Shown: positions 3,132-59,300 of the stretch, one piece after another | How the letters are laid out: the number at the start of each line of letters is the position of its first letter | Position numbering within the stretch: the first letter of the stretch is position 1 | NCBI GenBank assembly: GCA_916610825.1 | Contig: OU744454.1 | Span: 15,942,336 to 16,006,335 of the forward strand | Length of the DNA stretch: 64,000 nucleotides | Direction: 5' to 3' | DNA from: Haliclystus octoradiatus | Taxonomy: Eukaryota > Cnidaria > Staurozoa > Stauromedusae > Haliclystidae | Notes under the pieces: model-generated | What the model saw: only the letters and a program-made list of their open reading frames with translations | Told to the model about the DNA's origin: nothing | Databases searched by the model: none | Position numbers and translations under genes: made by a program

Positions 3132-7507
<4,376 letters not shown>

Positions 7508-31828: not shown

Positions 31829-34800
31829 TTAATTGCGTTTGAAAACTAATTGTTCAATGTTCATTAGCGGATATTCCACAAACAGAGCCAAGACAAATGC
31901 GCATGCGTATGACAGGGTTAAAAATGAGCAGAACAGGTAAGCCTAAAAGAAGAAACGCAAGTGAAAAATCAACAAATAGAATGGATAGATAAATAGTATT
32001 AGGGGGTGTTTATATGAGTCAGGCTAGCCAGGTTGAAGGTGTGTATGCCGCCTGTTTATATGGCAGTTTAATCCCACTTTCAGCCAAGCCAGCATTTTTT
32101 TCAAGTTTCCCAACTGAAATAACAAATCTTAATGTTTTATTTAAAATATTAAATTTATTGCAAATAATGATTTAATTTCAACGTCGTCTATTTGAAGCGG
32201 TTGCGCAGATGAAGCGATGACCTGGGCTGGCCCACCAAACTGTGTTTATATGGAGAATTTCCGTCTCCCACCTGGTTGGGCTAGCCCCGCAACCATATCA
32301 ACGCACGACTGTAAAACAATAGACAACAATAGTGAATGTTGATCTCACTCAAAGGTGTCGCCTCACCTTGCCGGGCTGACCCACCTCAAATAAACACCCC
32401 TTAGAGACCTTGAAATATTTCTGATGACTTACAATGCTAAGATCTGTATAATGAAGAGGAATTTGACTTGAAGAAACAAATAGGTAGATAACCAACGGAT
32501 GAAGGAGATAGGCTGAGTATGTTAGTCGGCTGGTTGGTATAAATGCTTTCCACGAAAGGAACCTATTCAAAAGACCTGTAGAGAGATATGAGAAGAAAAT
32601 GAAATAGGTTAATTAACGTTCATTAATGTCATATACTGTCTGTCTGTTCATGCAGGGAAGGTATTTCCATGGCCATCATTAAAATCATGTTGACTATTGT
32701 TGATCTGCCTTGGGGTGGGGTGACATTTAATTGTATTGCCCAGCACTGTTGGTTTATACCAAACAAGTGAAGTGAACCCGCTCCACTGGGTGAAATTTGA
32801 AAATACAAATATAGAAGCTAGCCCAAGTGATAAATAAACAATAGAACTGAAGGTCAGTCGGGTGTGAAAGATATTGCATGACTAACATGAGAATGTAATT
32901 TGTTCTCTCTATGGAGCTGCAAGAGAAATCCTACGAAACAAATACGCTTCGGATCGTCAATTGAAGGAATACAAAGATATGAGCATAAAACATGGCCTAC
33001 TGCACCTTAAACTTGCTTCCAATTTATGGTTACATATCCGGATCGAGCTCCGGTGAAGTCAGCAAATTTATTGTTCAACACACCCCTCAAAGAAAATTTC
33101 TCGGAACGGCCATGGATACAATAGCAAATAATATTTTAGACATGCAGTGACCACTTTATACAGGTGGTCATTGTATAGAGGTTACTGTTTTAAAAGGCTT
33201 GACTGTACTGAGGTATTCCCTGGAATTTTCCTTGGAAATACGATTACTGTTTTTGGTTCAAAAAGAGGATGGAATCTCTCAATCATTAATTTATGATAAG
33301 ATATCTTTCTTGTTATGTTTTTATCGATTCGTTGTACGTATCAAGGCTGCACGTCAGTGACACTTGGCAGTGACAGTCAGCTACAATTGCTGTCACAACA
33401 ATGCCAAAATACCTACCGCCAAAACCTGAATGGCAAGCAAAGACAATCCAGGCAAGAAAACAGCCCCAAGAGAACCGTGAAAATGTCCCATAAAAGACAC
33501 TACCAACATGAGTCATTGGTCTGCCCCCTTTCTTGTAGTTATGCCAATTACCCCATATTGTTGCCATGCCAACAATAGCACCTATACACCAGCCAATCAC
33601 AATGAAGGGCTAAAAGAGAAAAAGAATAACATTTATTAAATAACAAATGAGATAAAACGAACATGTAAAGCATTTTATTAATAGGTGATATATCTTACCA
33701 CTTTGATTGAACGCTTTGGTGAGCATTTCTTGATGAGAATGAAGCCCAAAAATAAGCCAACGATGTATGGTGAAATACGGCAGTATGGTTTAATATAAAT
33801 GTAACTTATAAACATGCCATACGACTTACTGAAATCAAATAAAAAAACTTAAAGACCAAAACAATTAAAATGTGTACGTAAAGTTATAATGAGATTGTAA
33901 TATATTGCAACATCAGTGGCACAGATTTAGATGCAACTAATATCGCAGGACAGTTAAACCTTTGCTCTAAGCCTCTGTTTGGCGTACGGTCCCATTATTG
34001 TAAAAATGAGTTGGTCAGTTACACTATGTATTCAAAAGGTTACAATCGACTCATTCTAACAAAGAAAAATTTTGCTTCGGTTAAAAAAAACATTATTCCA
34101 AGGCAGTGTAGACACATAGAGATACATATAGATTTATAATTATGAATTATTAAGAGAGGATTATTCAAACTGTTGCGTCAGATCAACTTCAACGTCATAA
34201 GTTAGTTACATTATTGCCATTGATGCAGTCTCTTTGAACTCAAGAAGTCGTATTGAAATTGAGTGTACCAATGTTGGATTATTTCATCATGTATTTATAT
34301 TAACTTGAAACAAACAAATACCTACGGATTCAATAGTGATGGTAAACTGTCCATATCTGTTATCAATCCATAATGGTCGATGATGACAGCAGTTGAAATA
34401 AAACCAGTAACAAGAAGAAAACCACAACTAACTAACGCACCAATTGTTTTGAATCTAGATTTAAAATCCATCAAAAGATCAATTCAAAATAAAATGCAGC
34501 CAAATATTTTCAGCAATTTATTAAATGTACATTGTAATTTAAAGTATCTTTTAAATTATGGCAGATTATATTATATTGAATTATAATGGGAGACAAAGAT
34601 GAGGCAAAAGCCTTTTTCCATTACTCAGAGTTTCACACATCTAAGTGGTATCTTCAGACGGTCTGACGGACATTACCGTCTGAAGATCGCAATTGAACGC
34701 GTGAAATTCTGAGTAACGGAAAAAGGCTTTTGCCTCATCTTTGTCTCTTATAATATAATGCTCTGTTTTATCCAATATTGAGCACTTTCATATTCATACC

Positions 34801-37800
34801 GGTATGTGTGTCTGAGTTTACACTCACTATAATTATTTTTTTCAACGAAGTGTCTATTTGACCGGCAGTCGCATCCATTATGGATTCCACATTGTGCGCA
34901 AACAGTAAATTACGTCATTCACTCGTTACAGGGTTAGGGTTAAGATTAGGGTCCGATCACATGATTAAATTTATTTTTGTTTCATCTGCTTTTGTCAGTT
35001 GACATAGATCAGTTGGAGTGAGTCTGACATTCGTGCAGGTCATGCTGGTTCAAGTCCAGGTCATTCCAAAATTTTTAATTTATTTTAATTATTTAACTTC
35101 CAATTCATAAGTTACTATTCGTTCATGATACGCATGCGTTGCTATCCATAATGGCTGCGACTGCCGGTCAAATAGTCAGAGCGTTTTTTTCAATTTATGA
35201 TAATTGTATTAAATTATAAATTGTAAAAATTGGTATCTTTAATATCTGAAATGCAGTTCATGAAACGGAGATTGGGAAACTTATCATAGCTTTTGCATGA
35301 AAAGTTCACAAACATGGTCCGATACAAGAGTTTTGGTAGATTCTAAATTTTGCATCTAAATTTCTTAGATGACGAAGAACAAATAAGTACTGTCAAAGAA
35401 CAAACAAAGATTATTGTCACACAAATAAAAACACAAATACCTTATCATCATCAAAATAACAATTGGGCTCATGATGTAAAATTGCATATCATTTGCTAGA
35501 TACCAACTCCATGAAACACACTGAAAAGAAATACCAAACGAGATGTCATCAAATTGTAGCAACTATCCTGTAGTAAAGTGAAACCTGTATATAACAGCCA
35601 GCTACAAGAGGTAGATAATTTGACCACTATAGACAAGTGGCTGCTGTATAGAGGTGACCGTAACAGGTTTAACTGTAGTGAATAATTTAATAGATGTCTT
35701 ACTTGCATGGGATTATCATGACCCACTATAGACAGGTGGCCGCTGTATAGAGGTGGCTGTTATAACAGATTTCACTGTAGTGAATAAATTAATAGATGTC
35801 TTACTTGCATGGGATTATAATGGCCACTATAGACAGGTGGCCGCTGTATAGAGGTGGCTGTTATAACAGATTTGACTGTAGTGAATAATTTAATAGATGT
35901 CTTACTTGCATGGGATTATAATGACCACTATAGACAGGTGGCCGCTGTATAGAGGTGACTGTTATAACAGGTTTGACTGTAGCGAATAATTTAATAGATG
36001 TCTTACTTCCATGGGATTATAATGACCACTATAGACAGGTGGCCGCTGTATAGAGGTGACTGTTATAACAGGTTTGACTGTAGTGAATAATTTAATAGAT
36101 GTCTCACTTGCATTGGATTATCATGACCACTATAGACAGGTGGCCGCTGTATAGAGGTGGCTGTTATAACAGGTTTGACTGTAGTGAATAATTTAATAGA
36201 TGTCTCACTTGCATTGGATTATCATGACCACTATAGACAGGTGGCCGCTGTATAGAGGTGGCTGTTATAACAGGTTTGACTGTAGTGAATAATTTAATAG
36301 ATGTCTTACTTGCATGGGATTATAACAACCACTATAGACAGGTGGCTGCTGTATAGAGGTGACTGTTATAACAGGTTTGACTGTAGTGAATAATTTAATA
36401 GATGTCTTACTTGCATGGGATTATAATGACCACTATAGACAGGTGGCCGCTGTATAGAGGTGACTGTTATAACAGATTTGACTGTAGTGAATAATTTAAT
36501 AGATGTCTTACTTGCATGGGATTATAACAACCACTATAGACAGGTGGCTGCTGTATAGAGGTGACTGTTATAACAGGTTTGACTGTAGTGAATAATTTAA
36601 TAGATATCTTACTTGCATGGGATTATAACAACCACTATAGACAGGTGGCTGCTGTATAGAGGTGACTGTTATAACAGGTTTGACTGTAGTGAATAATTTA
36701 ATAGATGTCTTACTTGCATGGGATTATAATGACCACTATAGACAGGTGGCCGCTGTATAGAGGTGACTGTTATAACAGATTTGACTGTAGTGAATAATTT
36801 AATAGATGTCTTACTTGCATGGGATTATAACAACCACTATAGACAGGTGGCTGCTGTATAGAGGTGACTGTTATAACAGGTTTGACTGTAGTGAATAATT
36901 TAATAGATGTCTTACTTCCATGGGATTATAATGACCACTATAGACAGGTGGCTGCTGTATAGAGGTGACTGTTATAACAGGTTTGACTGTAGTGAATAAT
37001 TTAATAGATGTCTCACTTGCATTGGATTATCATGACCACTATAGACAGGTGGCCGCTGTATAGAGGTGGCTGTTATAACAGGTTTGACTGTAGTGAATAA
37101 TTTAATAGATGTCTTACTTGCATGGGATTATAACAACCACTATAGACAGGTGGCTGCTGTATAGAGGTGACTGTTATAACAGGTTTGACTGTAGTGAATA
37201 ATTTAATAGATGTCTTACTTGCATGGGATTATAACAACCACTATAGACAGGTGGCTGCTGTATAGAGGTGACTGTTATAACAGGTTTGACTGTAGTGAAT
37301 AATTTAATAGATGTCTTACTTGCATGGGATTATAATGACCACTATAGACAGGTGGCCGCTGTATAGAGGTGACTGTTATAACAGATTTGACTGTAGTGAA
37401 TAATTTAATAGATGTCTTACTTGCATGGGATTATAACAACCACTATAGACAGGTGGCTGCTGTATAGAGGTGACTGTTATAACAGGTTTGACTGTAGTGA
37501 ATAATTTAATAGATGTCTTACTTGCATGGGATTATAACAACCACTATAGACAGGTGGCCGCTGTATAGAGGTGGCTGTTATAACAGATTTGACTGTAGTG
37601 AATAATTTAATAGATGTCTTACTTCCATGGGATTATAATGACCACTATAGACAGGTGGCCGCTGTATAGAGGTGACTGTTATAACAGATTTGACTGTAGT
37701 GAATAATTTAATAGATGTCTTACTTGCATGGGATTATAACAACCACTATAGACAGGTGGCTGCTGTATAGAGGTGACTGTTATAACAGGTTTGACTGTAG

Positions 37801-40800
37801 TGAATAATTTAATAGATGTCTTACTTGCATGGGATTATAACAACCACTATAGACAGGTGGCTGCTGTATAGAGGTGACTGTTATAACAGGTTTGACTGTA
37901 GTGAATAATTTAATAGATGTCTTACTTCCATGGGATTGTCAGCTGGCACAAAATTATTGATATAAAGTAAATTAGTCCACCAGTAAGATTTGCAGCTGTC
38001 AGACAATGCCTGTTGTGTAAACCAAGTAGGACCTTCTCCCAATGAAGGATAGATGTACATTGTGAACAAAATTACAAACATGTAGGTAGGAGTCAATCTG
38101 AAAATAAATAAGAAGAATTCAAAATATATAAAGTAGATTTTTTGTTGAAATTTATTTTGACACATCGTCAACAATTTGACAGCAATACCGTATGTCATTT
38201 AATAAAAAAAAAATCCTTTAAAATGATTTTACTAATATAAATTCTCATCATAATACTATCTTAGGCAAAAAGGAAATATACAATTGATGAATAATATGTG
38301 ACTAATTGGTGCTATTTTTGTAAACTTGAGTGACCATGAATTAGTTGCCTATGTCTACAATCCTACATTGTTGAGTTAATAGAAATAGAATATCGATTTG
38401 GAAGAAATAGCTCTTTCCATTTCAGTAGTCGCACTTTTCAATCCAATGAAGATATAGAGTGGGAATCTAAAATCCTTTGATATAAAAACCAAATCATGTA
38501 AAAACATTGAAGCTATAAATAAGGATGTGGATAGAGTCCCAGGAACCGGGTCTTGATTGAAAAAAGCAAGAGTCACGGTAGTCAAATACGCATGCGCAGA
38601 ACGTTTTTCTGTCTTCAAAATATATAAATAAAACTTTCAATTTTCTTAAACTTTAAAATTACATCATTTTAGAAGTTGTTAAAAGATATCAAACTCATTT
38701 GATAATGACATTGTGGCAAATAGGATACCTTTTGAAAGCTATTCAACATTTGCGGAAGAATAGTAAATGCTTGACTTAGCAGAGATGAGAACTTATATAA
38801 AACCGACGTTGCGTTTATCACGAACGATAACCAACGGAAACATTCAAGACATTCAACAAGTTAAATATTAAATCCCACATTTTTAGACTGAAATTCTTAT
38901 ACTACCAAAAAACCATTGATCAATCATTTGTAATTGTTGAATAATTGTTGAACGATGTATGTTACAATGTAGAAATTGAGCAAGATTTGATATCAGTGCC
39001 CGCAGTTTCTGGCAAAGGGGCAACGTGCATTTTTTGATGTAAGGGTTTTTAATCCTTTCGCAAAGAGTCACCTGAACCAGAAACTTCAAACAGCATTCAC
39101 TGCTAATGAAAAAGAAAAAAACGTAGTTACAATCAACGAGTAATCGAGATAGAGCATGGCTCATTCAGCCCCCTCATCTTCACCCCCTACGGAGGCTACA
39201 GCCGCGAAACTGAGTTGTTTGTGTCTGAACTTTCAAGAAAAATAAGTGAAAAAAAAGGTATTGATCGTGGCATTCTTCTGCACTGGCTGAGAGCTGAAAT
39301 ATCCTTTGATCTTACCCGTTCTGCTGTGCTCTGCATTCGTGGTTCAAGATCTATCAAATCAACAGTCGTAGTATACATACGAAACGTCGAGATTTTACAT
39401 TCAAATGGTCACATCACTGCTTAATTAAATAATGTAAATACAAAATAATTCCATAAACTATAATTATGATATAGCTGTAAAAGTAAATAAATCACATGAC
39501 TGTGACGCTTGTAAATATTTAAGAACAAACTGTGTTTAATTGTGTTATGTTGGACGAACAAACAAACAAGTAATTGTTTTCTGCAAATAACACTAGCCCT
39601 AGCTAAAGCAGCGCTGTTTTCACTTCGTTCCACAAATAAGAATGTAGGGGACCTTGACGAAAACATCTAAAGTATTCTTCATCTAAAGGTTCTTCATATT
39701 CATCGAACGCATATATATATGTATATCATAATATCATTATTCTAAATTGATCTTTGTCATTTAATTTTCACGAAAGAATTTTAAATCCCATTACATCGAG
39801 AAGCTGTGACAGAAATGAAAATACGATATTGATGTTTCACGCTTTGACGCTTGGTGTTGTGCGTGTGCTATTTGATTGCCAGGACTTTAGTTTTTTTAAG
39901 CAAAGACCCGGTTACAGGGACTATATCCACTTTATATAAATAAACGACTCAGAAATTATAAAGGACAAACCTATATGGTAATAGCTGCAATTGATGTTTG
40001 TAGTCCACTATCTGTGTTTCCCTTCAATGAGAGAAGGGAAGAAGGCTGTTCTGAATCCTGGATTGACATTTGTAGGGTCCACAGACTTTTTAAACTTTTT
40101 AAAAGGACCACTTAATAGAATATCTGGCAAAAGGTTAGCTTTCATATTTGTTGACCTACGATCTACAATCTGAATTTAATCTACCCTTCTAGGCTTCTGA
40201 CTTTTTCAGACCCTCCGACTATGCATGCAAATAAAGGAATATTGTGAGATGAAATTAGAGCATATATACAATGACGCAGACATACCTGAGGAATCGATGC
40301 ACGTAATATTGCACCCACGGAAACTTTCCTTTTGCAGAAATTCTACGCAGTGTCAAAAAGGACACCAACAAACCACTGAAATATAAAATAATTCAAATGT
40401 TTTAAATAATCACAAGCAGAGAGACATGAAGGAATGTCAATCAAAACAGGTCTTACCTCAGAAAGAAGAAACTATCAACTGAAAATGGTGCATTTGCAAC
40501 TGGTAAAAACGTAAAACGATAAAGTACATGGAATGCAAATACCAAATTGTCTGTAACTGTAGAAAAATACAAACTGATTATTAGATATACTACTGACACC
40601 GAAGCAATAAAAAAGCGTAACATTTCATAGCATTTCCACATTTTATTATCATGAACATGGATGTTTTCATGGTTTTCAAAAATTTTAAAGGCTTAAAAGA
40701 TTTGTGGTTTCACTTTTTTACATTTTCATGACATTTTCCTGGTTTTGTGTAGGAGGTGAAATTAAATTCATTAGCAAAGTTTTGATAAATATTAAAAACA

Positions 40801-43800
40801 TAAACCAAACAAATTAGTGAAAACTGTTTATGAATTTTCACAGACATTAGTAACAGTTCACAACACGTCCTTTAACAGCTTTAGTTTTTCATAAACATTT
40901 TATTACGAATTTGATTTCACATACTGTAGCCCAGTTATTTGAAATTTATAATTTATATTTCCTAAATTAACAAGAGGTATATAAAACAAAGTGTCTATTT
41001 GACCGGCAGTCGCAGCCATTATGGATTCCACTGCGTGTGCGCATATAGTAAATTACATCATTCACTCAATCACATGTTTCACTCATCCCAAGGTTAGGGC
41101 TAGAATGTGACCATGCAACAGCCACCCAGTCGAGGGTAAATTTGTTTCTGTTTCATCAGCTATCGTCATTCCACATAGCTCATTCGGAGTGCGCTCAGAT
41201 CATGCTGGTTCAATTCCAGGTCGTTCAAAATTTTGAACATATTTTCATTATTTAAGTTCCAAAATTTTTATATGTTACTGTATGTTCGTAATACGGCATG
41301 CTTTGCTATCCATAATGGCGTTGACTGCCCGTCAAATAGTCGTAGCGTATATAAAATGCAGATTCAAGGCCTGAAAAATAGTTTGTATGCAGTTGAACAG
41401 AACTTTAATCTCACAGTTTATAATGCAGTGGTTAGGACGATGGACCTCAGCAGAGTCTAAGGGTTCAATGCCTTTCAGTTCACTATTGGATGGTGCTACG
41501 GTGACCAGTAAACACTTGAAAGTTGTTCACATCGATTATGTATTGATAGTGTTTAATTTATGTAATTTTTCATTTAAAATATGTCAACTGGGGTTGAGGC
41601 TCATTTATAGGCAGAAAAGAAGTAAAAAACACAACTGAATGATAAAATCACTACAAACTCACCATATGCATTTGAAGAAATTGCAAACGTATGACCTAGA
41701 ATCACCCACCACATACTCAAAGTGCGTATACCATTAATGCAACCAATTGCACCCATTGGGGCATCTGTGCGTAAGATGGCTGATGCATTCTTTGTTGCAG
41801 AAAAGCAAAGAAGGAAATCAAGAGGCCAGTCTATAGAATCACAAGAGATTTAAATGGTTTGGTATAAATAAATCTTAATTTTTGATGAAGCATTTGATTT
41901 CTGAATTCTCACTCAACGTTCGTCGAGAAGGTACTTCAGTCACCATTGATCCTTTTGCACCAGAGTCATCTACTGTTGAATCAACAATTTCAATATGACT
42001 TAACGAGCAATCATTATTATCTTCTTCAACTCCACTAGATCGTTCTGGTTGGATAGGCTGGCAAGCTTTCTGCCTGAGGACTTTCATAAACCCTTGCGGC
42101 AAAATTACATCAACTACAGTTCCAATTAAGGCCAGAACGATGAACAAAATACAGATAAACCTAGATGAAATAAACATAAACTCAATTAGGGTGAATGTTT
42201 GTTTTCTGGAGTTCTTATTGATAGATATTTATTTAATTATTTAATCAAAAGAATACCATTTAAGATTGGATGCGTTTCCAGACGCATTTCCAACCAATAG
42301 TTCTCTTCCCCTGCGAAAAACAGTTCAGGAGTTCATGAACAATTCATGAACAATTCATGAATGTTAAATGGCTTCGATTTTCCTGAACTGTTCATGAATT
42401 GTTCATTGTTCATGAACAGTTCATGAAAGTTTGGGGCCATTCAACGTTCATGAACTGTTCATGAACTGTTCATGAACTCCTGAACTGTTTTCGCAGGGGT
42501 TTCTAGGAATAGGACAAACAACCTTACAAGAAAGGTCCAAAGCCTTAACAATTACAATACTACAACCTATGTCATATACCAAATGTGCAATATAATGAAC
42601 AAAACTGATGAAATAATCTAAGAAAACGCATTATTCTGCGGAATCGATCATGTACACTTGTACAGGTCATGGTTTTCACTGGTGTTCAAGAGACTTTTAG
42701 TGAGGGGTGATTAGCTCAGTTGGCAGAGCAACCGAACTTCAGATCGTATCATATCTGATCGACTGTGGTTCAAATCCCCCTCAGGTCAACTCAGCCTTGA
42801 CTTTATCTGAAACATCAAATGAGTACCATCTAAGGATGGCGGATGGAATGGTTCAGAAGGAATTGCATTTTGAGTAGCTGCGGCGCATCGTTGCGCATTG
42901 ACAATCAAGGCCTATCTGCCTGAAGTCTGTTGAAATTGATCTGCAGTGTCGCGGCTGAGATCTAAGGAGCGTTTAACATCATTGCTCTTAGCGAAAAGAG
43001 CCACTCTTCTAGAAATAGAGGAGTGGTACGGGTGCCTTCGGTAGGCCGACACCGTCCACATTTTTTAAGAGACTTTTCAACTATAAAGAGCATAAATCTA
43101 TAATACAACTCATTTTGTCAGCCCTCTTGTTGAATGCACACATTACAAACAATTTCTATCCCTTAATATAGTTCTCTCTCGATTCATGAGGATAATTTAT
43201 TATGCAAGTTGAAATTACACTGAAAGGAGAATGTGTGCCTCTTCTTGAAGAGTGTTAGAGAGTTTATTATTTAGGATAACAATTGACACTACATCATTCA
43301 TTCATGATCACATTATTAACTTACTGTACTGCAGCCCAGTCTTGTTAGATAGAAAAGGCAAACAGCCACGTTGCAAAGCTTGCTGTATTATCATCATTAA
43401 TAGTGCATTTCTCCTTTACTGTTTTCAATTATTTTTCCCCATCCTCCTCCCAGTTTCGCAAACACGTTGATAAATATGTGGTAAGCCTTCTGCTTTCTTT
43501 TAATTTGTTCCACTGGTTATCAGTGGTGCTAATGGCTTCATAGAAATGCGCATACTCTGCCAGTGCAATTGCTGCTATGCTCGTTAAACCCACCTACCAG
43601 CAAGCATCAATGCCAACGCTCATCTTTAATGAAGAGTTTAAATTGCTTTTAATAGCTGTTTGTTTGTTTTCATAAAATTAAAATCTAAGGATATTTTTGA
43701 AGCCGGATTTGTAACTTGAATGTGAAATTAGGTTTCAGACAAAATTGGTCATAATTATCAGCTTTAATAAAGGTGAAGTTCCCTAAACATAAACTTATAA

Positions 43801-46720
43801 TGAACTTATAACAAACTGTAGCCTATGTATGCATTTTTTATTAATTTTAAACTCGTATTCAATTCACATTAAAAAAAGGTGAAGTTCCCTAAACATAAAC
43901 TTATAATGAACTTATAACAAACTGTAGCCTATGTATGCATTTTTTATTAATTTAAACTCGTATTCAATTCACATTAAAAAGTTGTTCCCTAAACATAAAC
44001 TTATAATGAACTTATAACAAACTGTTTTATGTAGGCCTATATAGCCTATGTATGCATTTTTTATTAATTTAAACTCGTATTCAATTCACATTAAAAAAGT
44101 TGTTCCCTAAACATAAACTTTTAAATGAACTTATAACAAACTTCTTTCCCGAGGGGGAGTGATGCTGCGACTGATTCCATGCCATTTATGAAAAGAGGTT
44201 ACTTCTATTAACGTTACCTACATTGTGATTCCTGTACCAGTTGAAATCTCTTTTTTCAGAGGCATACAAACAAATGGCGACCCATAAACTACCTCAAAGG
44301 CAATATTGGGTGTGACATACTGTGATAGATTTGTCGCTACGAAGCAATAAATACATGTTATGCTATCGATGAGACTCAAAGGGCAATGTATAGGTGCCAT
44401 TGAAAATCATAAGTTGAAAGAACCGGATGCATTTGTTTCATTCCAAATCTATTTTGAAAAGACACAAATCGTAGTACGAGATAAAACTATTCTCAAGATG
44501 TTATATTAAATTATAGTTCCTAATCATTATGTGATTTCATCCTATATTAAGCAAAGTATGTTTTCCTGTAACTATACAGCGTAGTCCTTTAAAAAAGGCT
44601 GTGTATGACTTATATAACTTAACTTATAACTGTGTATTTCTGATACATTGGTTGGTTCAACAATAAGTACTGAGTGCCTGTCTATCTCTAGAAAGATGGA
44701 TCTCTTAGAAGGTGTTCAATTCTAGTTCAAGTGGAACAATCTGACAGATGAATGGGATGATATTATTACATCAGAAACTAATATTCTATTTAAAGAGAAA
44801 ATATTGTTTGAACACGCTGGATGTGCAATCAGACATGAAAGAGGCTTAAAAATCATGAGCCGCCAGGGAGTGATTTTGGCCTCTCGTGTGTCTCATAGCA
44901 CCAAAGGTGTTTGTATCAGAGTAGGCTACTTAACACAAACAACCGTTTTCTATTCGTTTTATAAAATAAATGAACTGTTTATTTTGACAGTAAAAAGCTT
45001 AATATAATGATTGCATGTAAATTATCCTAAATTGACGTCATGGTAGAGAATAGAACGAGTGCAGACTATCAATAGAAACACTTATAGGCTAGAGAATGAT
45101 TAAACTATTCGTAACAGGGTCCTATGCGTTTATACTTTTGAAGCAGTGAAACACTGACATTTTTCGTAACGTGCTATATTTTGTCATATATCAGCAAAAT
45201 AGAAAGCAGAACTACGAACAGAAACATTGAACAAGGCGTGATAAGCTATTTACAGCGTACAATCGAATAAGGGAATTTTTAAAGACTAGATGTTCAATTT
45301 ATGATTTGGTTTAAAAGTAATTGTGTCTACTTGTTGCTAATTTGAATTGAAGGGTATCCATGATTAAGTGGTTTATCAAATAAAAAGCTCTTGCTTCACA
45401 TAAGCGCCATTTTGTTGCGTTTTGGGTTTCAAGCCAGAAGCTGTAATTTATGATTTTAAGTAGCCTGACACAAACATCAACAACAACCAATCACGATCAG
45501 TGTGATATTTTATGATGTTATAATTAGTTGCAGCATTACTAGCTAGTAAAATATATATCGATATAAATCTTACATAATAGTAATGATACTGTATCTGTAT
45601 GTGGTCATAGATGTAATGCATGCATATAATCCTTTAGCAATATATCATCAAGTTCCTTATCATGTAACCTTTATTTATATTAATTTAGTTTGTATTTGGC
45701 AGTGTATATGAGTGATACTTTAGTAATATCAAGGTACTTGTGTTGTCTTTGCTGTTTCAATAGTGCTCGATGCCATAAATGCAGAGCTGTTTGATACTAT
45801 ATAATGTGAAGTGTCCTTTATTTGCCGAACGAAATAGCAAAATGTATCATATATAATATCATTGTTAATGTTGAATGTGTTTTGTAGAAATCGGCTGTTG
45901 TCTATCTGTTTTTCTTGAAACGACCAGTGCCAGTGGCTTCCCGTTTTTTAAAGATCGGCTTGTTGGATTCTCGTTTTTCTAGAGATCGACTGGTCCCCTA
46001 AGCACTGTACATGATTAATAATAAGGATTGCAGGGCATTATTTTTATGGGACAACCTTTGAAGAACTAACCTTTCAAGAGTTTTGAAACACCTATTGAAA
46101 CATCTTTTTGTGAGCATTTCTGCGGCACACACATGCCAATCAAAGGTGTCAGAGATTTCTGAAAATTCAACCAATTAAAAATTAGTTTATCTGACTGACT
46201 GCAGAACGCATCATGAATAAGGAATGCATACATGACGATAATCTTACATTTGTTGTGGGAATGTTTACTAGGTATGACCCTGTACAAAACTGTGTTTCTG
46301 GGAGCTGTTGACATTCTTGGTAAGACCCATACATTATCTGGTTGCCAACAAGAAGACCACTACCTGGTTTACCAATCGCATCAACATCTAAAAACGACAA
46401 AAAAAATTTAAAAGCTCTACCAATGCACCAATGAACATAAATTCTAGGTCGAAGCAGGCTGCAGGTTGTGTGTCCTTACATTGTGCAAGCAGCATGGGAT
46501 TTGTTAAGATCTTTCCCAGTTCATACTGACAATCAACTGATGAACTTCCAAACGCCGCTTTTAACGCTTGTTCTTCCCATTTAAGAGTATTATTGCTAGG
46601 CTGCAACAGTTTGAATAGAAATCTTTCGATAACCCCTTCATTACTTCCAGATGTTGTTGACAAACAGTAAACCAAGGCAAAAAGAAAGATTGGAACGGCC
46701 TGCTTTAATTTTGAAGCCAT
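31829..46720 (-). CDS. nrf-6-like acyltransferase-3 membrane protein, copy A
   Basis: Complete 15-exon gene, read from high to low: 46480-46720, 46248-46387, 46071-46158, 44222-44336, 41913-42160, 41663-41830, 40457-40556, 40286-40375, 37926-38097, 35441-35520, 34326-34454, 33699-33828, 33417-33609, 32433-32575, 31829-31942 (TAA). The sum is 2151 nt: 716 residues with every phase kept. Residues 1-25 form a signal peptide. The Cys-containing NRF domain follows (GKPGSGLLVGNQIMYGSY, GMCVPQKCSQKD). After a membrane segment (RFICILFIVLALIGTVVDVI) and an acidic linker comes the acyltransferase-3 domain: GIRTLSMWWVILGH with the family's R-x10-H (R~313, H~324), CVSWSWYLANDMQFY, RLTYSAYLLHPLVI and a last segment ending FVEYPLMNIEQLV. 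Family members (C. elegans NRF-6 and NDG-4) are multi-pass proteins linked to lipid and drug handling; the substrate is unknown. Intron 9 is almost wholly a 101-bp minisatellite. Confidence 0.92.
32002..32400. mobile_element. PIF/Harbinger-like MITE in intron 14 (copy A)
   Basis: Flanked by TTA on both sides (31999-32001 and 32401-32403). Left end GGGGGTGTTTATATGAG; right end CTCAAATAAACACCCC. The 3-bp TTA target duplication and G-rich termini fit PIF/Harbinger-type elements. The copy B element (47570-47934) is 34 bp shorter with several substitutions. Confidence 0.75.
33127..33207 (+). mobile_element. M1-family right half (copy A intron 13)
   Basis: TTTTAGACATGCAGTGACCA followed by TACAGGTGGTCATTGTATAG and GGCTTGACTGTA, matching the right half of 14742-14922. 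The copy B counterpart is at 48661-48741. Confidence 0.6.
34618..34661 (-). ncRNA. Hammerhead-like core (copy 2, degenerate)
   Basis: On the minus strand: CCGT, CTGAAGA, a weak stem II in which CAC/GTG can pair only out of register, GAA, ACT-CTG-AGT hairpin, A, ATGG. The CCGT/ATGG pairing has one G-U. Copy B: 50152-50195. Confidence 0.3.
34676..34719 (+). ncRNA. Hammerhead-like core (copy 3)
   Basis: CCGT, CTGAAGA, CGC/GCG stem II, GAA, ATT-CTG-AGT hairpin (one U-G), A at the cleavage position, ACGG pairing with CCGT. The pairs differ from copy 1 but pairing is kept. Copy B: 50210-50253. Confidence 0.4.
34851..35178. mobile_element. MITE family M4 with internal tRNA-like box (copy A, intron 10)
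   Basis: Left end TGTCTATTTGACCGGCAGTC followed by GCATCCATTATGGA; right end TCCATAATGGCTGCGACTGC followed by CGGTCAAATAGTCA. The arms pair over ~34 bp. The interior has GATCAGTTGGAGTG and GGTTCAAGTCC, spaced like the A and B boxes of a tRNA promoter. Copy B: 50385-50712. Confidence 0.8.
35579..37936. repeat. 101-bp minisatellite in intron 9 (copy A, ~23 units)
   Basis: The unit length is 101 bp (for example 36961 to 37062). Plus-strand unit: TGAATAATTTAATAGATGTC, TTACTTGCATGGGATTATAA, TGACCACTATAGACAGGTGG, CCGCTGTATAGAGGTGACTG, TTATAACAGGTTTGACTGTA, G. The last ~60 bp are the right half of an M1 element. The first ~40 bp match the end of exon 9 plus the start of intron 9, including the donor: on the minus strand CCCATG(G/C)AA then GTAAGACATC. 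The left edge (from 35579, GTGAAACCTGTATATAACAG) is the full left terminus of an M1 element. Variants alternate (GCATGGG/CCATGGG/CATTGGA; TATAACAACC/TATAATGACC/TATCATGACC; GGCCGC/GGCTGC), giving a higher-order pattern. Confidence 0.95.
38098..40285 (-). other. Intron 8 of copy A
   Basis: 2.2 kb intron. It contains ACGCATGCGCAGAACG at ~38589 and a short TA run near 39711. Several unsupported frames of 60-90 codons are present; none has family resemblance or splice context. The copy B counterpart is 56962-59149. Confidence 0.6.
40650..40755. mobile_element. M2-family fragment (copy A, intron 6)
   Basis: AACATGGATGTTTTCATGGT, then a middle and TTTTTTACATTTTCATGACA ... TTCCTGGTTTTGTGT. It matches the reverse complement of 19381-19524. 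Copy B: 59514-59619. Confidence 0.5.
40992..41342. mobile_element. MITE family M4, second member (copy A, intron 6)
   Basis: Opens TGTCTATTTGACCGGCAGTC and closes CCATAATGGCGTTGACTGCC then CGTCAAATAGTCG. The interior holds AGCTCATTCGGAGTGCG and GGTTCAATTCCAGGTCG, again like A and B boxes. Just after it, GTGGTTAGGACGATGGACC ... GGGTTCAATGCC (41410-41470) is another tRNA-like fragment. Copy B: 59856-60206. Confidence 0.75.
42308..42499. mobile_element. M3 palindromic foldback element (copy A, intron 4)
   Basis: Begins CCCCTGCGAAAAACAGTTCA and ends TGAACTGTTTTCGCAGGGG. The interior is built from overlapping GTTCATGAACTGTTCATGAA words, so the strand can fold back on itself almost end to end. Copy B: 61172-61363. 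Confidence 0.85.
42699..43066 (+). mobile_element. tRNA-derived SINE, well preserved (copy A, intron 4)
   Basis: Perfect 11-bp target-site duplication AAGAGACTTTT at 42688-42698 and 43067-43077. The 5' head is tRNA-like: GATTAGCTCAGTTGGCAGAG (A box) and TGTGGTTCAAATCCCCCTCA (B box); the anticodon arm no longer folds as in a tRNA. The body and 3' end (GGTGCCTTCGGTAGGCCGAC then a T-rich tail) follow. It shares family with 3676-3945. Copy B: 61563-61930. Confidence 0.9.
43768..44142. repeat. ~110-bp tandem repeat, four units (copy A, intron 4)
   Basis: Units carry TTCCCTAAACATAAACTTAT, GCCTATGTATGCATTTTTTA and CTCGTATTCAATTCACATTA. The third has a short GTAGGCCTATATA insertion and the last is truncated. 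Copy B: 62632-63006. Confidence 0.9.
44337..46070 (-). other. Intron 3 of copy A
   Basis: 1.7 kb AT-rich intron with no repeat family or gene that I can recognise. The matched part in copy B runs from 63201 to the window end. Confidence 0.6.
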
Positions 46721-50300: not shown

Positions 50301-53300
50301 TTTATCCAATATTGAGCACTTTCATATTCATACCGGTATGTGTGTCTGAGTTTACACTCACTATAATTATTTTTTTCAACAAAGTGTCTATTTGACCGGC
50401 AGTCGCATCCATTATGGATTCCACATTGTGCGCAAACAGTAAATTACGTCATTCACTCGTTACAGGGTTAGGGTTAAGATTAGGGTCCGATCACATGATT
50501 AAATTTATTTTTGTTTCATCTGCTTTTGTCAGTTGACATAGATCAGTTGGAGTGAGTCTGACATTCGTGCAGGTCATGCTGGTTCAAGTCCAGGTCATTC
50601 CAAAATTTTTAATTTATTTTAATTATTTAACTTCCAATTCATAAGTTACTATTCGTTCATGATACGCATGCGTTGCTATCCATAATGGCTGCGACTGCCG
50701 GTCAAATAGTCAGAGCGTTTTTTTCAATTTATGATAATTGTATTAAATTATAAATTGTAAAAATTGGTATCTTTAATATCTGAAATGCAGTTCATGAAAC
50801 GGAGATTGGGAAACTTATCATAGCTTTTGCATGAAAAGTTCACAAACATGGTCCGATACAAGAGTTTTGGTAGATTCTAAATTTTGCATCTAAATTTCTT
50901 AGATGACGAAGAACAAATAAGTACTGTCAAAGAACAAACAAAGATTATTGTCACACAAATAAAAACACAAATACCTTATCATCATCAAAATAACAATTGG
51001 GCTCATGATGTAAAATTGCATATCATTTGCTAGATACCAACTCCATGAAACACACTGAAAAGAAATACCAAACGAGATGTCATCAAATTGTAGCAACTAT
51101 CCTGTAGTAAAGTGAAACCTGTATATAACAGCCAGCTACAAGAGGTAGATAATTTGACCACTATAGACAAGTGGCTGCTGTATAGAGGTGACCGTAACAG
51201 GTTTAACTGTAGTGAATAATTTAATAGATGTCTTACTTGCATGGGATTATCATGACCCACTATAGACAGGTGGCCGCTGTATAGAGGTGGCTGTTATAAC
51301 AGATTTGACTGTAGTGAATAAATTAATAGATGTCTTACTTGCATGGGATTATAATGGCCACTATAGACAGGTGGCCGCTGTATAGAGGTGGCTGTTATAA
51401 CAGATTTGACTGTAGTGAATAATTTAATATATGTCTTTGCATGGGATTATCCTGACCACTATAGACAGGTGGCCGCTGTATAGAGGTGGCTGTTATAACA
51501 GATTTGACTGTAGTGAATAATTTAATAGATGTCTTACTTGCATGGGATTATAATGACCACTATAGACAGGTGGCCGCTGTATAGAGGTGACTGTTATAAC
51601 AGATTTGACTGTAGTGAATAATTTAATAGATGTCTTACTTGCATGGGATTATAACAACCACTATAGACAGGTGGCTGCTGTATAGAGGTGACTGTTATAA
51701 CAGGTTTGACTGTAGTGAATAATTTAATAGATGTCTTACTTCCATGGGATTATAATGACCACTATAGACAGGTGGCCGCTGTATAGAGGTGACTGTTATA
51801 ACAGGTTTGACTGTAGTGAATAATTTAATAGATGTCTCACTTGCATTGGATTATCATGACCACTATAGACAGGTGGCCGCTGTATAGAGGTGGCTGTTAT
51901 AATAGATTTGACTGTAGTGAATAATTTAATAGATGTCTTACTTGCATGGGATTATCATGACCACTATAGACAGGTGGCCGCTGTATAGAGGTGGCTGTTA
52001 TAACAGATTTGACTGTAGTGAATAATTTAATAGATGTCTTACTTGCATGGGATTATAATGACCACTATAGACAGGTGGCCGCTGTATAGAGGTGACTGTT
52101 ATAACAGGTTTGACTGTAGCGAATAATTTAATAGATGTCTTACTTCCATGGGATTATAATGACCACTATAGACAGGTGGCCGCTGTATAGAGGTGACTGT
52201 TATAACAGGTTTGACTGTAGTGAATAATTTAATAGATGTCTCACTTGCATTGGATTATCATGACCACTATAGACAGGTGGCCGCTGTATAGAGGTGGCTG
52301 TTATAACAGGTTTGACTGTAGTGAATAATTTAATAGATGTCTCACTTGCATTGGATTATCATGACCACTATAGACAGGTGGCCGCTGTATAGAGGTGGCT
52401 GTTATAACAGGTTTGACTGTAGTGAATAATTTAATAGATGTCTTACTTGCATGGGATTATAACAACCACTATAGACAGGTGGCTGCTGTATAGAGGTGAC
52501 TGTTATAACAGGTTTGACTGTAGTGAATAATTTAATAGATGTCTTACTTGCATGGGATTATAATGACCACTATAGACAGGTGGCCGCTGTATAGAGGTGA
52601 CTGTTATAACAGATTTGACTGTAGTGAATAATTTAATAGATGTCTTACTTGCATGGGATTATAACAACCACTATAGACAGGTGGCTGCTGTATAGAGGTG
52701 ACTGTTATAACAGGTTTGACTGTAGTGAATAATTTAATAGATGTCTTACTTGCATGGGATTATAACAACCACTATAGACAGGTGGCTGCTGTATAGAGGT
52801 GACTGTTATAACAGGTTTGACTGTAGTGAATAATTTAATAGATGTCTTACTTGCATGGGATTATAATGACCACTATAGACAGGTGGCCGCTGTATAGAGG
52901 TGACTGTTATAACAGATTTGACTGTAGTGAATAATTTAATAGATGTCTTACTTGCATGGGATTATAACAACCACTATAGACAGGTGGCTGCTGTATAGAG
53001 GTGACTGTTATAACAGGTTTGACTGTAGTGAATAATTTAATAGATGTCTTACTTCCATGGGATTATAATGACCACTATAGACAGGTGGCCGCTGTATAGA
53101 GGTGACTGTTATAACAGGTTTGACTGTAGTGAATAATTTAATAGATGTCTCACTTGCATTGGATTATCATGACCACTATAGACAGGTGGCCGCTGTATAG
53201 AGGTGGCTGTTATAATAGATTTGACTGTAGTGAATAATTTAATAGATGTCTTACTTGCATGGGATTATCATGACCACTATAGACAGGTGGCCGCTGTATA

Positions 53301-56300
53301 GAGGTGGCTGTTATAACATATTTGACTGTAGTGAATAATTTAATAGATGTCTTACTTGCATGGGATTATAATGACCACTATAGACAGGTGGCCGCTGTAT
53401 AGAGGTGACTGTTATAACAGGTTTGACTGTAGCGAATAATTTAATAGATGTCTTACTTCCATGGGATTATAATGACCACTATAGACAGGTGGCCGCTGTA
53501 TAGAGGTGACTGTTATAACAGGTTTGACTGTAGTGAATAATTTAATAGATGTCTCACTTGCATTGGATTATCATGACCACTATAGACAGGTGGCCGCTGT
53601 ATAGAGGTGGCTGTTATAACAGGTTTGACTGTAGTGAATAATTTAATAGATGTCTCACTTGCATTGGATTATCATGACCACTATAGACAGGTGGCCGCTG
53701 TATAGAGGTGGCTGTTATAACAGGTTTGACTGTAGTGAATAATTTAATAGATGTCTTACTTGCATGGGATTATAACAACCACTATAGACAGGTGGCTGCT
53801 GTATAGAGGTGACTGTTATAACAGGTTTGACTGTAGTGAATAATTTAATAGATGTCTTACTTCCATGGGATTATAATGACCACTATAGACAGGTGGCCGC
53901 TGTATAGAGGTGACTGTTATAACAGATTTGACTGTAGTGGATAATTTAATAGATGTCTTACTTGCATGGGATTATAACAACCACTATAGACAGGTGGCTG
54001 CTGTATAGAGGTGACTGTTATAACAGGTTTGACTGTAGTGAATAATTTAATAGATGTCTTACTTGCATGGGATTATAATGACCACTATAGACAGGTGGCC
54101 GCTGTATAGAGGTGACTGTTATAACAGATTTGACTGTAGTGAATAATTTAATAGATGTCTTACTTGCATGGGATTATAACAACCACTATAGACAGGTGGC
54201 TGCTGTATAGAGGTGACTGTTATAACAGGTTTGACTGTAGTGAATAATTTAATAGATGTCTTACTTCCATGGGATTATAATGACCACTATAGACAGGTGG
54301 CCGCTGTATAGAGGTGACTGTTATAACAGATTTGACTGTAGTGAATAATTTAATAGATGTCTTACTTGCATGGGATTATAACAACCACTATAGACAGGTG
54401 GCCGCTGTATAGAGGTGGCTGTTATAACAGATTTGACTGTAGTGAATAATTTAATAGATGTCTTACTTCCATGGGATTATAATGACCACTATAGACAGGT
54501 GGCCGCTGTATAGAGGTGACTGTTATAACAGATTTGACTGTAGTGAATAATTTAATAGATGTCTTACTTGCATGGGATTATAACAACCACTATAGACAGG
54601 TGGCTGCTGTATAGAGGTGACTGTTATAACAGGTTTGACTGTAGTGAATAATTTAATAGATGTCTTACTTCCATGGGATTATAACAACCACTATAGACAG
54701 GTGGCTGCTGTATAGAGGTGACTGTTATAACAGGTTTGACTGTAGTGAATAATTTAATAGATGTCTTACTTCCATGGGATTATAATGACCACTATAGACA
54801 GGTGGCCGCTGTATAGAGGTGACTGTTATAACAGGTTTGACTGTAGTGAATAATTTAATAGATGTCTTACTTGCATGGGATTATAACAACCACTATAGAC
54901 AGGTGGCCGCTGTATAGAGGTGGCTGTTATAACAGATTTGACTGTAGTGAATAATTTAATAGATGTCTTACTTCCATGGGATTATAATGACCACTATAGA
55001 CAGGTGGCCGCTGTATAGAGGTGACTGTTATAACAGATTTGACTGTAGTGAATAATTTAATAGATGTCTTACTTGCATGGGATTATAACAACCACTATAG
55101 ACAGGTGGCTGCTGTATAGAGGTGACTGTTATAACAGGTTTGACTGTAGTGAATAATTTAATAGATGTCTTACTTCCATGGGATTATAACAACCACTATA
55201 GACAGGTGGCTGCTGTATAGAGGTGACTGTTATAACAGATTTGACTGTAGTGAATAATTTAATAGATGTCTTACTTGCATGGGATTATAACAACCACTAT
55301 AGACAGGTGGCTGCTGTATAGAGGTGACTGTTATAACAGGTTTGACTGTAGTGAATAATTTAATAGATGTCTTACTTCCATGGGATTATAACAACCACTA
55401 TAGACAGGTGGCTGCTGTATAGAGGTGACTGTTATAACAGGTTTGACTGTAGTGAATAATTTAATAGATGTCTTACTTCCATGGGATTATAACAACCACT
55501 ATAGACAGGTGGCTGCTGTATAGAGGTGACTGTTATAACAGGTTTGACTGTAGTGAATAATTTAATAGATGTCTTACTTCCATGGGATTATAATGACCAC
55601 TATAGACAGGTGGCCGCTGTATAGAGGTGACTGTTATAACAGGTTTGACTGTAGTGAATAATTTAATAGATGTCTTACTTGCATGGGATTATAACAACCA
55701 CTATAGACAGGTGGCCGCTGTATAGAGGTGGCTGTTATAACAGATTTGACTGTAGTGAATAATTTAATAGATGTCTTACTTGCATGGGATTATAATGACC
55801 ACTATAGACAGGTGGCCGCTGTATAGAGGTGGCTGTTATAACAGATTTGACTGTAGTGAATAATTTAATAGATGTCTTACTTGCATGGGATTATAACAAC
55901 CACTATAGACAGGTGGCTGCTGTATAGAGGTGACTGTTATAACAGGTTTGACTGTAGTGAATAATTTAATAGATGTCTTACTTGCATGGGATTATAATGA
56001 CCACTATAGACAGGTGGCCGCTGTATAGAGGTGACTGTTATAACAGATTTGACTGTAGTGAATAATTTAATAGATGTCTTACTTGCATGGGATTATAACA
56101 ACCACTATAGACAGGTGGCTGCTGTATAGAGGTGACTGTTATAACAGGTTTGACTGTAGTGAATAATTTAATAGATGTCTTACTTCCATGGGATTATAAT
56201 GACCACTATAGACAGGTGGGCGCTGTATAGAGGTGACTGTTATAACAGATTTGACTGTAGTGAATAATTTAATAGATGTCTTACTTGCATGGGATTATAA

Positions 56301-59300
56301 CAACCACTATAGACAGGTGGCCGCTGTATAGAGGTGGCTGTTATAACAGATTTGACTGTAGTGAATAATTTAATAGATGTCTTACTTCCATGGGATTATA
56401 ATGACCACTATAGACAGGTGGCCGCTGTATAGAGGTGACTGTTATAACAGATTTGACTGTAGTGAATAATTTAATAGATGTCTTACTTGCATGGGATTAT
56501 AACAACCACTATAGACAGGTGGCTGCTGTATAGAGGTGACTGTTATAACAGGTTTGACTGTAGTGAATAATTTAATAGATGTCTTACTTCCATGGGATTA
56601 TAACAACCACTATAGACAGGTGGCTGCTGTATAGAGGTGACTGTTATAACAGGTTTGACTGTAGTGAATAATTTAATAGATGTCTTACTTGCATGGGATT
56701 ATAACAACCACTATAGACAGGTGGCTGCTGTATAGAGGTGACTGTTATAACAGGTTTGACTGTAGTGAATAATTTAATAGATGTCTTACTTCCATGGGAT
56801 TGTCAGCTGGCACAAAATTATTGATATAAAGTAAATTAGTCCACCAGTAAGATTTGCAGCTGTCAGACAATGCCTGTTGTGTAAACCAAGTAGGACCTTC
56901 TCCCAATGAAGGATAGATGTACATTGTGAACAAAATTACAAACATGTAGGTAGGAGTCAATCTGAAAATAAATAAGAAGAATTCAAAATATATAAAGTAG
57001 ATTTTTTGTTGAAATTTATTTTGACACATCGTCAACAATTTGACAGCAATACCGTATGTCATTTAATAAAAAAAAAATCCTTTAAAATGATTTTACTAAT
57101 ATAAATTCTCATCATAATACTATCTTAGGCAAAAAGGAAATATACAATTGATGAATAATATGTGACTAATTGGTGCTATTTTTGTAAACTTGAGTGACCA
57201 TGAATTAGTTGCCTATGTCTACAATCCTACATTGTTGAGTTAATAGAAATAGAATATCGATTTGGAAGAAATAGCTCTTTCCATTTCAGTAGTCGCACTT
57301 TTCAATCCAATGAAGATATAGAGTGGGAATCTAAAATCCTTTGATATAAAAACCAAATCATGTAAAAACATTGAAGCTATAAATAAGGATGTGGATAGAG
57401 TCCCAGGAACCGGGTCTTGATTGAAAAAAGCAAGAGTCACGGTAGTCAAATACGCATGCGCAGAACGTTTTTCTGTCTTCAAAATATATAAATAAAACTT
57501 TCAATTTTCTTAAACTTTAAAATTACATTATTTTAGAAGTTGTTAAAAGATATCAAACTCATTTGATAATGACATTGTGGCAAATAGGATACCTTTTGAA
57601 AGCTATTCAACATTTGTGGAAGAATAGTAAATGCTTGACTTAGCAGAGATGAGAACTTATATAAAACCGACGTTGCGTTTATCACGAACGATAACCAACG
57701 GAAACATTCAAGACATTCAACAAGTTAAATATTAAATCCCACATTTTTAGACTGAAATTCTTATACTACCAAAAAACCATTGATCAATCATTTGTAATTG
57801 TTGAATAATTGTTGAACGATGTATGTTACAATGTAGAAATTGAGCAAGATTTGATATCAGTGCCCGCAGTTTCTGGCAAAGGGGCAACGTGCATTTTTTG
57901 ATGTAAGGGTTTTTAATCCTTTCGCAAAGAGTCACCTGAACCAGAAACTTCAAACAGCATTCACTGCTAATGAAAAAGAAAAAAACGTAGTTACAATCAA
58001 CGAGTAATCGAGATAGAGCATGGCTCATTCAGCCCCCTCATCTTCACCCCCTACGGAGGCTACAGCCGCGAAACTGAGTTGTTTGTGTCTGAACTTTCAA
58101 GAAAAATAAGTGAAAAAAAAGGTATTGATCGTGGCATTCTTCTGCACTGGCTGAGAGCTGAAATATCCTTTGATCTTACCCGTTCTGCTGTGCTCTGCAT
58201 TCGTGGTTCAAGATCTATCAAATCAACAGTCGTAGTATACATACGAAACGTCGAGATTTTACATTCAAATGGTCACATCACTGCTTAATTAAATAATGTA
58301 AATACAAAATAATTCCATAAACTATAATTATGATATAGCTGTAAAAGTAAATAAATCACATGACTGTGACGCTTGTAAATATTTAAGAACAAACTGTGTT
58401 TAATTGTGTTATGTTGGACGAACAAACAAACAAGTAATTGTTTTCTGCAAATAACACTAGCCCTAGCTAAAGCAGCGCTGTTTTCACTTCGTTCCACAAA
58501 TAAGAATGTAGGGGACCTTGACGAAAACATCTAAAGTATTCTTCATCTAAAGGTTCTTCATATTCATCGAACGCATATATATATGTATATCATAATATCA
58601 TTATTCTAAATTGATCTTTGTCATTTAATTTTCACGAAAGAATTTTAAATCCCATTACATCGAGAAGCTGTGACAGAAATGAAAATACGATATTGATGTT
58701 TCACGCTTTGACGCTTGGTGTTGTGCGTGTGCTATTTGATTGCCAGGACTTTAGTTTTTTTAAGCAAAGACCCGGTTACAGGGACTATATCCACTTTATA
58801 TAAATAAACGACTCAGAAATTATAAAGGACAAACCTATATGGTAATAGCTGCAATTGATGTTTGTAGTCCACTATCTGTGTTTCCCTTCAATGAGAGAAG
58901 GGAAGAAGGCTGTTCTGAATCCTGGATTGACATTTGTAGGGTCCACAGACTTTTTAAACTTTTTAAAAGGACCACTTAATAGAATATCTGGCAAAAGGTT
59001 AGCTTTCATATTTGTTGACCTACGATCTACAATCTGAATTTAATCTACCCTTCTAGGCTTCTGACTTTTTCAGACCCTCCGACTATGCATGCAAATAAAG
59101 GAATATTGTGAGATGAAATTAGAGCATATATACAATGACGCAGACATACCTGAGGAATCGATGCACGTAATATTGCACCCACGGAAACTTTCCTTTTGCA
59201 GAAATTCTACGCAGTGTCAAAAAGGACACCAACAAACCACTGAAATATAAAATAATTCAAATGTTTTAAATAATCACAAGCAGAGAGACATGAAGGAATG

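What the first reader, a model, noticed from the sequence alone, without database searches (positions are those of the whole stretch)
35579..37936. Minisatellite that multiplies a gene's own 5' splice site
Each 101-bp unit fuses the right half of an M1 transposon-like element to the last bases of exon 9 plus its donor (minus strand CCCATGGAA or CCCATGCAA, then GTAAGACATC). Intron 9 of copy A therefore carries about 23 near-identical donors in a row, all in the sense orientation, with acceptor-like CACTACAG and CTATAG in each unit. These could act as decoy donors or give cryptic exons of 22 or 71 nt (neither a multiple of three), so they could tune splicing or cause nonsense decay. A repeat born from an exon-intron edge plus a MITE half is unusual.
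Basis: partly seen in the sequence, partly recalled or inferred. Interest (0 to 1): 0.78.

Follow-up and report, generated by a model that had tools for sequence, protein, structure and literature searches.

The report
Intron repeat that copies splice donor
A small jumping element landed just behind a splice site in an animal gene, and a 101-base piece holding the end of the exon, its splice signal and half the element was then copied head to tail, so the intron carries 18 to 54 look-alike splice signals that the cell must apparently pass over to make the protein.

Summary
Copy B in the same window has 56 units; copies C and D lie just outside it. Over the four arrays 120 of 126 units keep a GTRAG donor: 116 decoys and 4 authentic. 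Each unit is 15 nt of exon end, 27 nt of intron start and 59 nt of half a 100-bp MITE with TA target sites. A fifth tandem paralog (E) has an 83-nt intron at the same place, the same donor, no MITE and no array: a clean empty site. Decoys equal the real donor in U1 pairing and are on average no less accessible, yet the genes keep open frames. Best explanation: a by-product minisatellite, tolerated because exon definition picks the first donor; leakage would give premature stops. No RNA data were available, and no selection on the decoys was detected. Kind: new variant of a known kind (TE-derived minisatellite; tandem duplication across an exon-intron edge). I did not find this combination in the papers searched.

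The parts
37926..38097 (-).
   Evidence: Gene model with open frame; same boundary in E and other paralogs
35521..37925 (-). Intron 8 of copy A, 2405 nt, phase 0, GT..AG
35576..37940 (-). 101-bp array of copy A: 23 units, 23 GTRAG donors (22 decoys plus the authentic one at 37925), ending in one complete M1
35576..35675 (-). Complete M1 MITE copy, 100 bp, flanked by TA (35676-35677 and 35574-35575)
   Evidence: empty site in E
35441..35520 (-). Coding exon 9 of copy A (acceptor side of the intron), CVSWSWYLANDMQF...
32349..46720 (-). Gene copy A: 13 coding exons, 671 aa, acyltransferase-3 domain protein
   Evidence: Frame open; PF01757 E 1.3e-21
56790..56961 (-). Coding exon 8 of copy B
51055..56789 (-). 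Intron 8 of copy B, 5735 nt, 56 units: 54 decoy donors plus the authentic one
51110..51209 (-). Complete M1 at the end of array B

Best explanation
Shown from sequence: a 100-bp TA-flanked MITE (M1) stands in an intron whose M1-free form in paralog E is 83 nt, inserted 27 nt behind the 5' splice site; a 101-bp tandem block joins the last ~15 nt of the exon, the 27 nt of intron start and the first 59 nt of M1; the block is repeated 23-56 times within the intron, and four tandem gene copies (A-D) carry it. Inferred: E shows the state before the insertion; the array grew by slippage or unequal exchange before and after the gene duplications. Inferred mechanism: the repeat is a by-product. Nearly every unit offers U1 a site as good as the real one, but because introns 7 and 8 are now long (2.2 and 2.4-5.7 kb) exon 8 is recognised by exon definition, and the first donor, nearest to the exon's own 3' splice site, wins. 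Decoys are mostly silent; leakage at the +101 donor or at the last donor (182-185 nt from the acceptor), or use of a 71-nt cryptic exon, would give a premature stop within 15 codons and probably nonsense decay.
For: Unit anatomy and complete M1 at the far end. Empty site in E: CAC[TA]CTAG against CAC[TA]-M1-[TA]CTACAGG. M1 family: 36 copies outside the arrays listed; 11 of 15 distinct copies read show TA on both sides. U1 pairing -4.5 kcal/mol for the authentic donor and -4.5 to -4.6 for the GTRAG decoy types. Decoys not hidden by structure: mean 9-mer accessibility 0.11-0.16, about the intron's own mean, against 0.015-0.038 for the authentic site. Genes still selected: A against E dN 0.081, dS 0.241 (exons 1-12); A against D 2/1337 exon changes (exons 1-9) against 80/8396 in introns 1-7 and 9, Fisher p 0.001; no internal stop in A-D. 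Stops at codon 434 (retention), 424 (71 nt) or 423 (22 nt) of 671. With identical duplicated 5' splice sites and long flanking introns the upstream site was used exclusively in minigenes in transfected cells (PMC9225289, abstract and part 1 of 2 of Results read).
Against: No RNA data, so which donor is used is not shown. The exon-definition rule is from a human data set and transfected minigenes; whether it holds in this animal is untested. The authentic donor is the second weakest of the gene's 12 by U1 pairing and looks less accessible than the decoys, which would favour decoys; in the paper, two equally weakened donors led to exon skipping in the larger constructs. The exon-against-intron contrast holds for A and D; between A and C it is 1 exon change against 14 in introns, and between A and B it is reversed (7 exon changes, all in the last exon, against 7 in introns). 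Low divergence also reflects recent duplication or gene conversion (introns 10-12 are identical in A-D). When the array had two units the intron was, by my estimate, under 300 nt, where intron definition could have preferred the decoy; that early step is unexplained.
Confidence: 0.6

Rival explanations
1. Functional rheostat: the decoy donors (and 71-nt cryptic exons) draw a fixed share of transcripts into nonsense decay, so that array length sets the output of each gene copy.
For: Decoys match the authentic donor in U1 pairing; CACTACAG scores 5.5 on a PWM of 24 acceptors (A and E, so not independent), above the 95th percentile (4.0) of 561 AGs in the gene region and above 6 of 24 authentic sites scored leave-one-out; all three unwanted products are stopped early; array length differs between copies (22, 54, 22, 18 decoys).
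Against: Donor columns vary like the rest: 1 of 6 variable against 26 of 92 other columns in 112 of 126 units, and this count flatters the donor, because the 14 units dropped include all six that have lost it; 5 of those six are in D. A, C and D have similar lengths and no dosage data exist.
Confidence: 0.15
2. Neutral minisatellite with no effect at all: decoys are never used, and the captured splice site is accident only.
For: No conservation signal; loss of donors in D; growth by multi-unit blocks as in ordinary minisatellites (B has runs EIJKUVJGC and EIJKPVJGC 13 units apart; exact self-blocks of 4 or more also arise in 62 of 1000 shuffles).
Against: Decoys are as good as the real site by the measures tried, so complete silence would itself need an explanation.
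Confidence: 0.2
3. Assembly artefact: haplotypes or array reads misjoined into false tandem copies.
For: A, B and C differ by at most 0.7% in any intron, and in most introns by 0-2 bases.
Against: No N in the 124 kb joined; copies differ in array length, in the last exon of B and in spacing; D is about 1% diverged in introns and its array is built mostly of its own unit types; E is clearly distinct.
Confidence: 0.05

Closest known systems
Satellites and minisatellites derived from MITEs (e.g. Tc1/mariner-type miDNA4 in Xenopus, BIV160 in bivalves; review PMC9659126, passages read)
   Same: A tandem repeat born from part of a MITE
   Different: Here the unit also contains the end of a coding exon and its 5' splice site, inside the same gene, in sense orientation
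[quoted passage not shown]
   Same: A tandem duplication crosses an exon-intron boundary and copies splice signals
   Different: There a duplication across an intron-second exon edge gave one new intron; here a 5' splice site is copied 18-54 times and no new intron is shown
Polyubiquitin UBC array of dual-specific splice sites (PMC10809524, abstract, UBC section and Discussion read)
   Same: Tandem repeat in which each unit carries a splice site
   Different: UBC units are coding, in frame, and use AGGT as donor and acceptor; these units are intronic, out of frame and lack AGGT at the donor
Minigenes with two identical 5' splice sites (PMC9225289, abstract and part 1 of 2 of Results read)
   Same: Identical donors in cis compete for one acceptor
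   Different: Built in the laboratory with two donors; here nature built 19 to 55

Membership tests
MITE (M1), Tc1/mariner-like by target site | Dispersed copies of one short length | tested here: met
   36 copies outside the arrays listed, most about 100 bp and nearly full length, after scoring 40 of 2024 first-look candidates
MITE (M1), Tc1/mariner-like by target site | TA target-site duplication and empty site | tested here: met
   TA on both sides in 11 of 15 distinct copies read by eye; E is the empty site
MITE (M1), Tc1/mariner-like by target site | Terminal inverted repeats CAGT(C/T)AAACC / GGTTTCACTG | tested here: met
   by eye, with single-base departures in several copies
MITE (M1), Tc1/mariner-like by target site | Mobilised by a Tc1/mariner transposase of this genome | not tested
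   No autonomous partner was looked for
Minisatellite | Head-to-tail array, unit of tens of bases or somewhat more, high identity | tested here: met
   101 bp, 23 and 56 copies, 95-96% matches
Dual-specific splice-site array (UBC type) | AGGT used as donor and acceptor at each unit edge | tested here: not met
   Donor reads CAAGTAAG or GAAGTAAG; no AGGT there
Intron gain by tandem duplication | New spliced intron inside the duplicated block | not testable with these tools
   No RNA data
Nose-resistant-to-fluoxetine (NRF-6)-like acyltransferase | Acyltransferase-3 domain PF01757 | tested here: met
   77.5 bits, cut-off 31
Nose-resistant-to-fluoxetine (NRF-6)-like acyltransferase | N-terminal NRF domain PF20146 | tested here: inconclusive
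   24.3 bits, just under the cut-off of 27

The most novel reading that the evidence does not exclude
The array silences its own decoys by growing. In the short ancestral intron (83 nt) a second, equal donor would have been preferred by intron definition and would have spoiled the message; each added unit lengthened the intron until exon definition took over and the first donor won. Selection would then favour long arrays, and shortening an array below a threshold number of units would switch splicing to the decoys. If so, repeat length, not donor strength, sets the splice choice, and the four copies with 18-54 decoys are a natural length series.
Probability: 0.13. Interest if true: 0.78.

Novelty: new variant of a known kind. 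Interest (0 to 1): 0.56.

Why it matters
How a spliceosome chooses one donor among identical ones is commonly studied in made constructs with two sites. Here is a natural gene with 19 to 55 near-identical donors at 101-nt steps, in four near-identical gene copies, plus an empty-site paralog as control. It also shows step by step how a MITE insertion next to a splice site can turn an exon edge into a minisatellite.

Tried and rejected
Rejected: (a) that the unit's donor is unrelated to the exon: the 42-nt block (15 exon + 27 intron) matches the real boundary, and E has the same donor without array. (b) That decoys are hidden by RNA structure: they are on average more accessible than the authentic site in local folding. 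(c) Ratchet-type recursive splicing: I saw no unit that joins an acceptor directly to GT (by eye). (d) UBC-type dual sites: no AGGT at the donor. (e) Chaining of neighbouring 71-nt exons: the intron between would be 30 nt.

Led nowhere: the U1 RNA of this genome was not obtained, so the U1 5' end used is the recalled canonical one; a whole-genome search for tandem M1 halves at other loci did not complete (only the 124 kb in hand were scanned: 68 hits, all 68 in the four introns); paper searches showed no case of a minisatellite made of an exon-intron edge plus half a MITE; only listings were seen, except for the four papers named.
Full report
WHAT IS THERE. The window is part of a 16.7-Mb contig of a 262-Mb genome (G000:C11:15942336-16006335). 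On the minus strand lies a gene of 13 coding exons and 671 aa (46720-32349) whose product matches the acyltransferase-3 family (PF01757, E 1.3e-21) and, just under the cut-off, the NRF N-terminal domain. Contig C33 (18.3 kb) looks like a mitochondrial genome: its first 10 kb hold a 530-codon frame that I recognise as COX1 and only two tRNAs by ARAGORN, with anticodons tca and cat, which as I recall fits a hexacoral; this was not tested further.

THE ARRAY. Intron 8 of copy A (37925-35521, 2405 nt) is almost wholly a 101-bp tandem array: 23 units. Read on the minus strand a unit is about 15 nt of exon end (TGATAATCCCATGCAA and variants), GTAAGACATCTATTAAATTATTCACTA (27 nt, the start of the intron) and 59 nt of M1. 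The last unit runs into a complete 100-bp M1 (35675-35576) and then into unique intron and the acceptor. Copy B in the same window has 56 units (intron 5735 nt); copies C and D, just to the right, have 23 and 24, two of those in D being only 55 bp long. GTRAG donors stand in 120 of 126 units: A 23 of 23, B 55 of 56, C 23 of 23, D 19 of 24; without the four authentic ones that is 116 decoys (22, 54, 22, 18). The donor-plus-intron pattern is found 118 times in the genome, all minus strand, reversed control 0; the 100 listed places are in arrays A-C, 18 were not listed, and 18 units of D fit the pattern by my count.

IS THE DONOR THE REAL ONE? Yes by homology. In copy A the exons join in phase 0 as ...NNFVPADNPME|CVSWSWYLANDMQF..., with the frame open. 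Paralog E joins ...VPADMRNE|CVGWSWYLANDMQF..., and in the five more distant paralogs found in the genome the exon ends near the same point. E shows no such array in 10 kb, and the other five none in the 420 nt read behind the exon match.

THE ANCESTRAL STATE. E has an intron of 83 nt beginning GTAAGACATCTACTTTTAAATTATTCAC-TA-CTAG. A-D have ATTATTCAC-TA-M1-TA-CTACAGG. M1 is a dispersed element: 36 copies outside the arrays are listed, 40 of 2024 first-look candidates having been scored, and 11 of 15 distinct copies read by eye have TA on both sides (16 loci were read and one, which showed the same element as another, was dropped; three have TA on the left only and one on the right only). So E is the empty site, and the order insertion, tandem duplication across exon end and mid-M1, amplification, gene duplication follows by inference. 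That E kept rather than regained the empty state is an inference too.

HOW THE ARRAY CHANGED. The first two units are the same in A, B and C; 47 unit types exist over the four arrays; B has a 9-unit run almost repeated 13 units later (one unit differs), and A shares a 6-unit block with B. Exact self-blocks of 4 or more appear in 62 of 1000 shuffles of B, so growth by blocks is likely but not proved; A and C share no exact block of 4. Genes A, B and C differ by 0-0.7% per intron, D from A by about 1% overall, and introns 10-12 are identical in all four: recent duplication or conversion.

ARE THE DECOYS GOOD SITES? By U1 pairing (canonical U1 end, recalled) the authentic donor scores -4.5 kcal/mol and the decoy types -4.5 to -4.6; that is second weakest among the gene's 12 donors (range -4.3 to -10.9), and 10.5% of 645 GT sites of the gene region score as well. 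Local folding leaves decoys on average more, not less, open than the authentic site. CACTACAG is a fair acceptor (5.5; 95th percentile of 561 AGs 4.0; 6 of 24 authentic lower), GTCTATAG a weak one (0.5) (the PWM rests on 24 sites of A and E, which are related). Donor to next CACTACAG is 30 nt, too short for an intron when the gene's short introns are 81-92 nt, so a 71-nt exon would need to skip at least one unit.

CONSEQUENCE OF MISTAKES. Retention or a decoy donor gives a stop after 14 codons (codon 434), the 71-nt exon at 424, the 22-nt exon at 423 of 671 (unit letters of the consensus type). Each lies ahead of several exon junctions, so decay is expected (established knowledge, not tested).

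ARE THE GENES STILL SELECTED? A-D have no internal stop; in B the last exon differs from A at 7 bases and the stop is replaced, so the frame runs on. A against E, exons 1-12 with a 6-nt gap left out: dN 0.081, dS 0.241, ratio 0.33. A against D: 2 changes in 1337 bases of exons 1-9 against 80 in 8396 bases of introns 1-7 and 9, Fisher p 0.001; I chose that stretch after seeing that introns 10-12 do not differ. A against C: 1 exon change, 14 in introns. A against B goes the other way: 7 exon changes, all in the last exon, and 7 in introns. Conversion blurs all of this. The fair reading is that the frames are kept and the longer-term A-E comparison shows constraint, so the first donor must be used often enough.

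ARE THE DECOYS SELECTED? I see no sign. In 112 units (of 126; the 4 first and 4 last units and the six units without a GTRAG donor were left out) 1 of 6 donor columns varies against 26 of 92 others. Since the six donor-less units were among those dropped, the count leans towards conservation and still shows little. In D 5 of 24 units have no donor.

MECHANISM. For competing donors of near-equal strength, human data say: long flanking introns, the upstream donor is favoured; short intron, the downstream donor; and in minigenes with two identical strong donors and 365-nt introns only the upstream one was used, while two weakened ones gave exon skipping in the larger constructs (PMC9225289). In E intron 8 is 83 nt and intron 7 831 nt; in A they are 2405 and 2188 nt. 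The array has therefore moved this exon from the intron-defined to the exon-defined class. I take this as the likeliest reason that the array is tolerated, and predict low leakage at +101 and at the last donor (182 nt from the acceptor in A, B and C, 185 in D). The bolder reading is that growth of the array was itself favoured because it silences the decoys.

KNOWN OR NEW. MITE-derived tandem repeats are well known (PMC9659126, passages); tandem duplication across an intron-exon edge is known as a source of new introns (PMC4974935, abstract); an array of splice sites is known in UBC (PMC10809524). The combination, an intronic minisatellite whose unit is the gene's own exon edge plus half a MITE, was not seen in the listings of eight answered searches of the paper library, which holds only open-licence papers. 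I file it as a new variant of a known kind.

Noticed in passing
29698-30578 (+): A second minisatellite, about 158 bp x 5.6, whose unit also holds a donor-like AAGAAG|GTAAAT; the same repeat occurs at two other places of contig C11 (15.59 and 16.26 Mb). Whether it was born from an exon edge is unknown.
   Followed up: partly
window 32349-64000 and L009-L013: Five tandem acyltransferase genes; introns 10-12 are identical in A-D while introns 2 and 3 of D differ from A by 1.3-1.5%, so the history is mosaic.
   Followed up: partly
47883-48109: The last exon of copy B differs from those of A, C and D (96.6% with flanks) and lacks their stop codon; the frame runs on to about 47709.
   Followed up: no
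exon 8 end, 37926-37940: The last 15 nt of exon 8 differ from E at 6 places against 19 in the other 157; the stretch varies among the paralogs seen, but conversion by array units could also have changed it.
   Followed up: partly
L011 about 3162-3474 and 3820-4132 (array D): Two blocks with 55-bp units that join M1 to M1 without a donor.
   Followed up: no
about 33145-33211 and 48679-48745: Diverged fragment that looks like part of an M1 element in the last intron of A and B (by eye).
   Followed up: no
about 42704-42800 and 61568-61660: tRNA-like promoter boxes (by eye), perhaps a SINE head; ARAGORN calls no tRNA in the window.
   Followed up: no
34590-34747 and 42308-42499: Long imperfect palindromes, 84-85% identical to their own reverse complement, possibly other foldback elements.
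   Followed up: no
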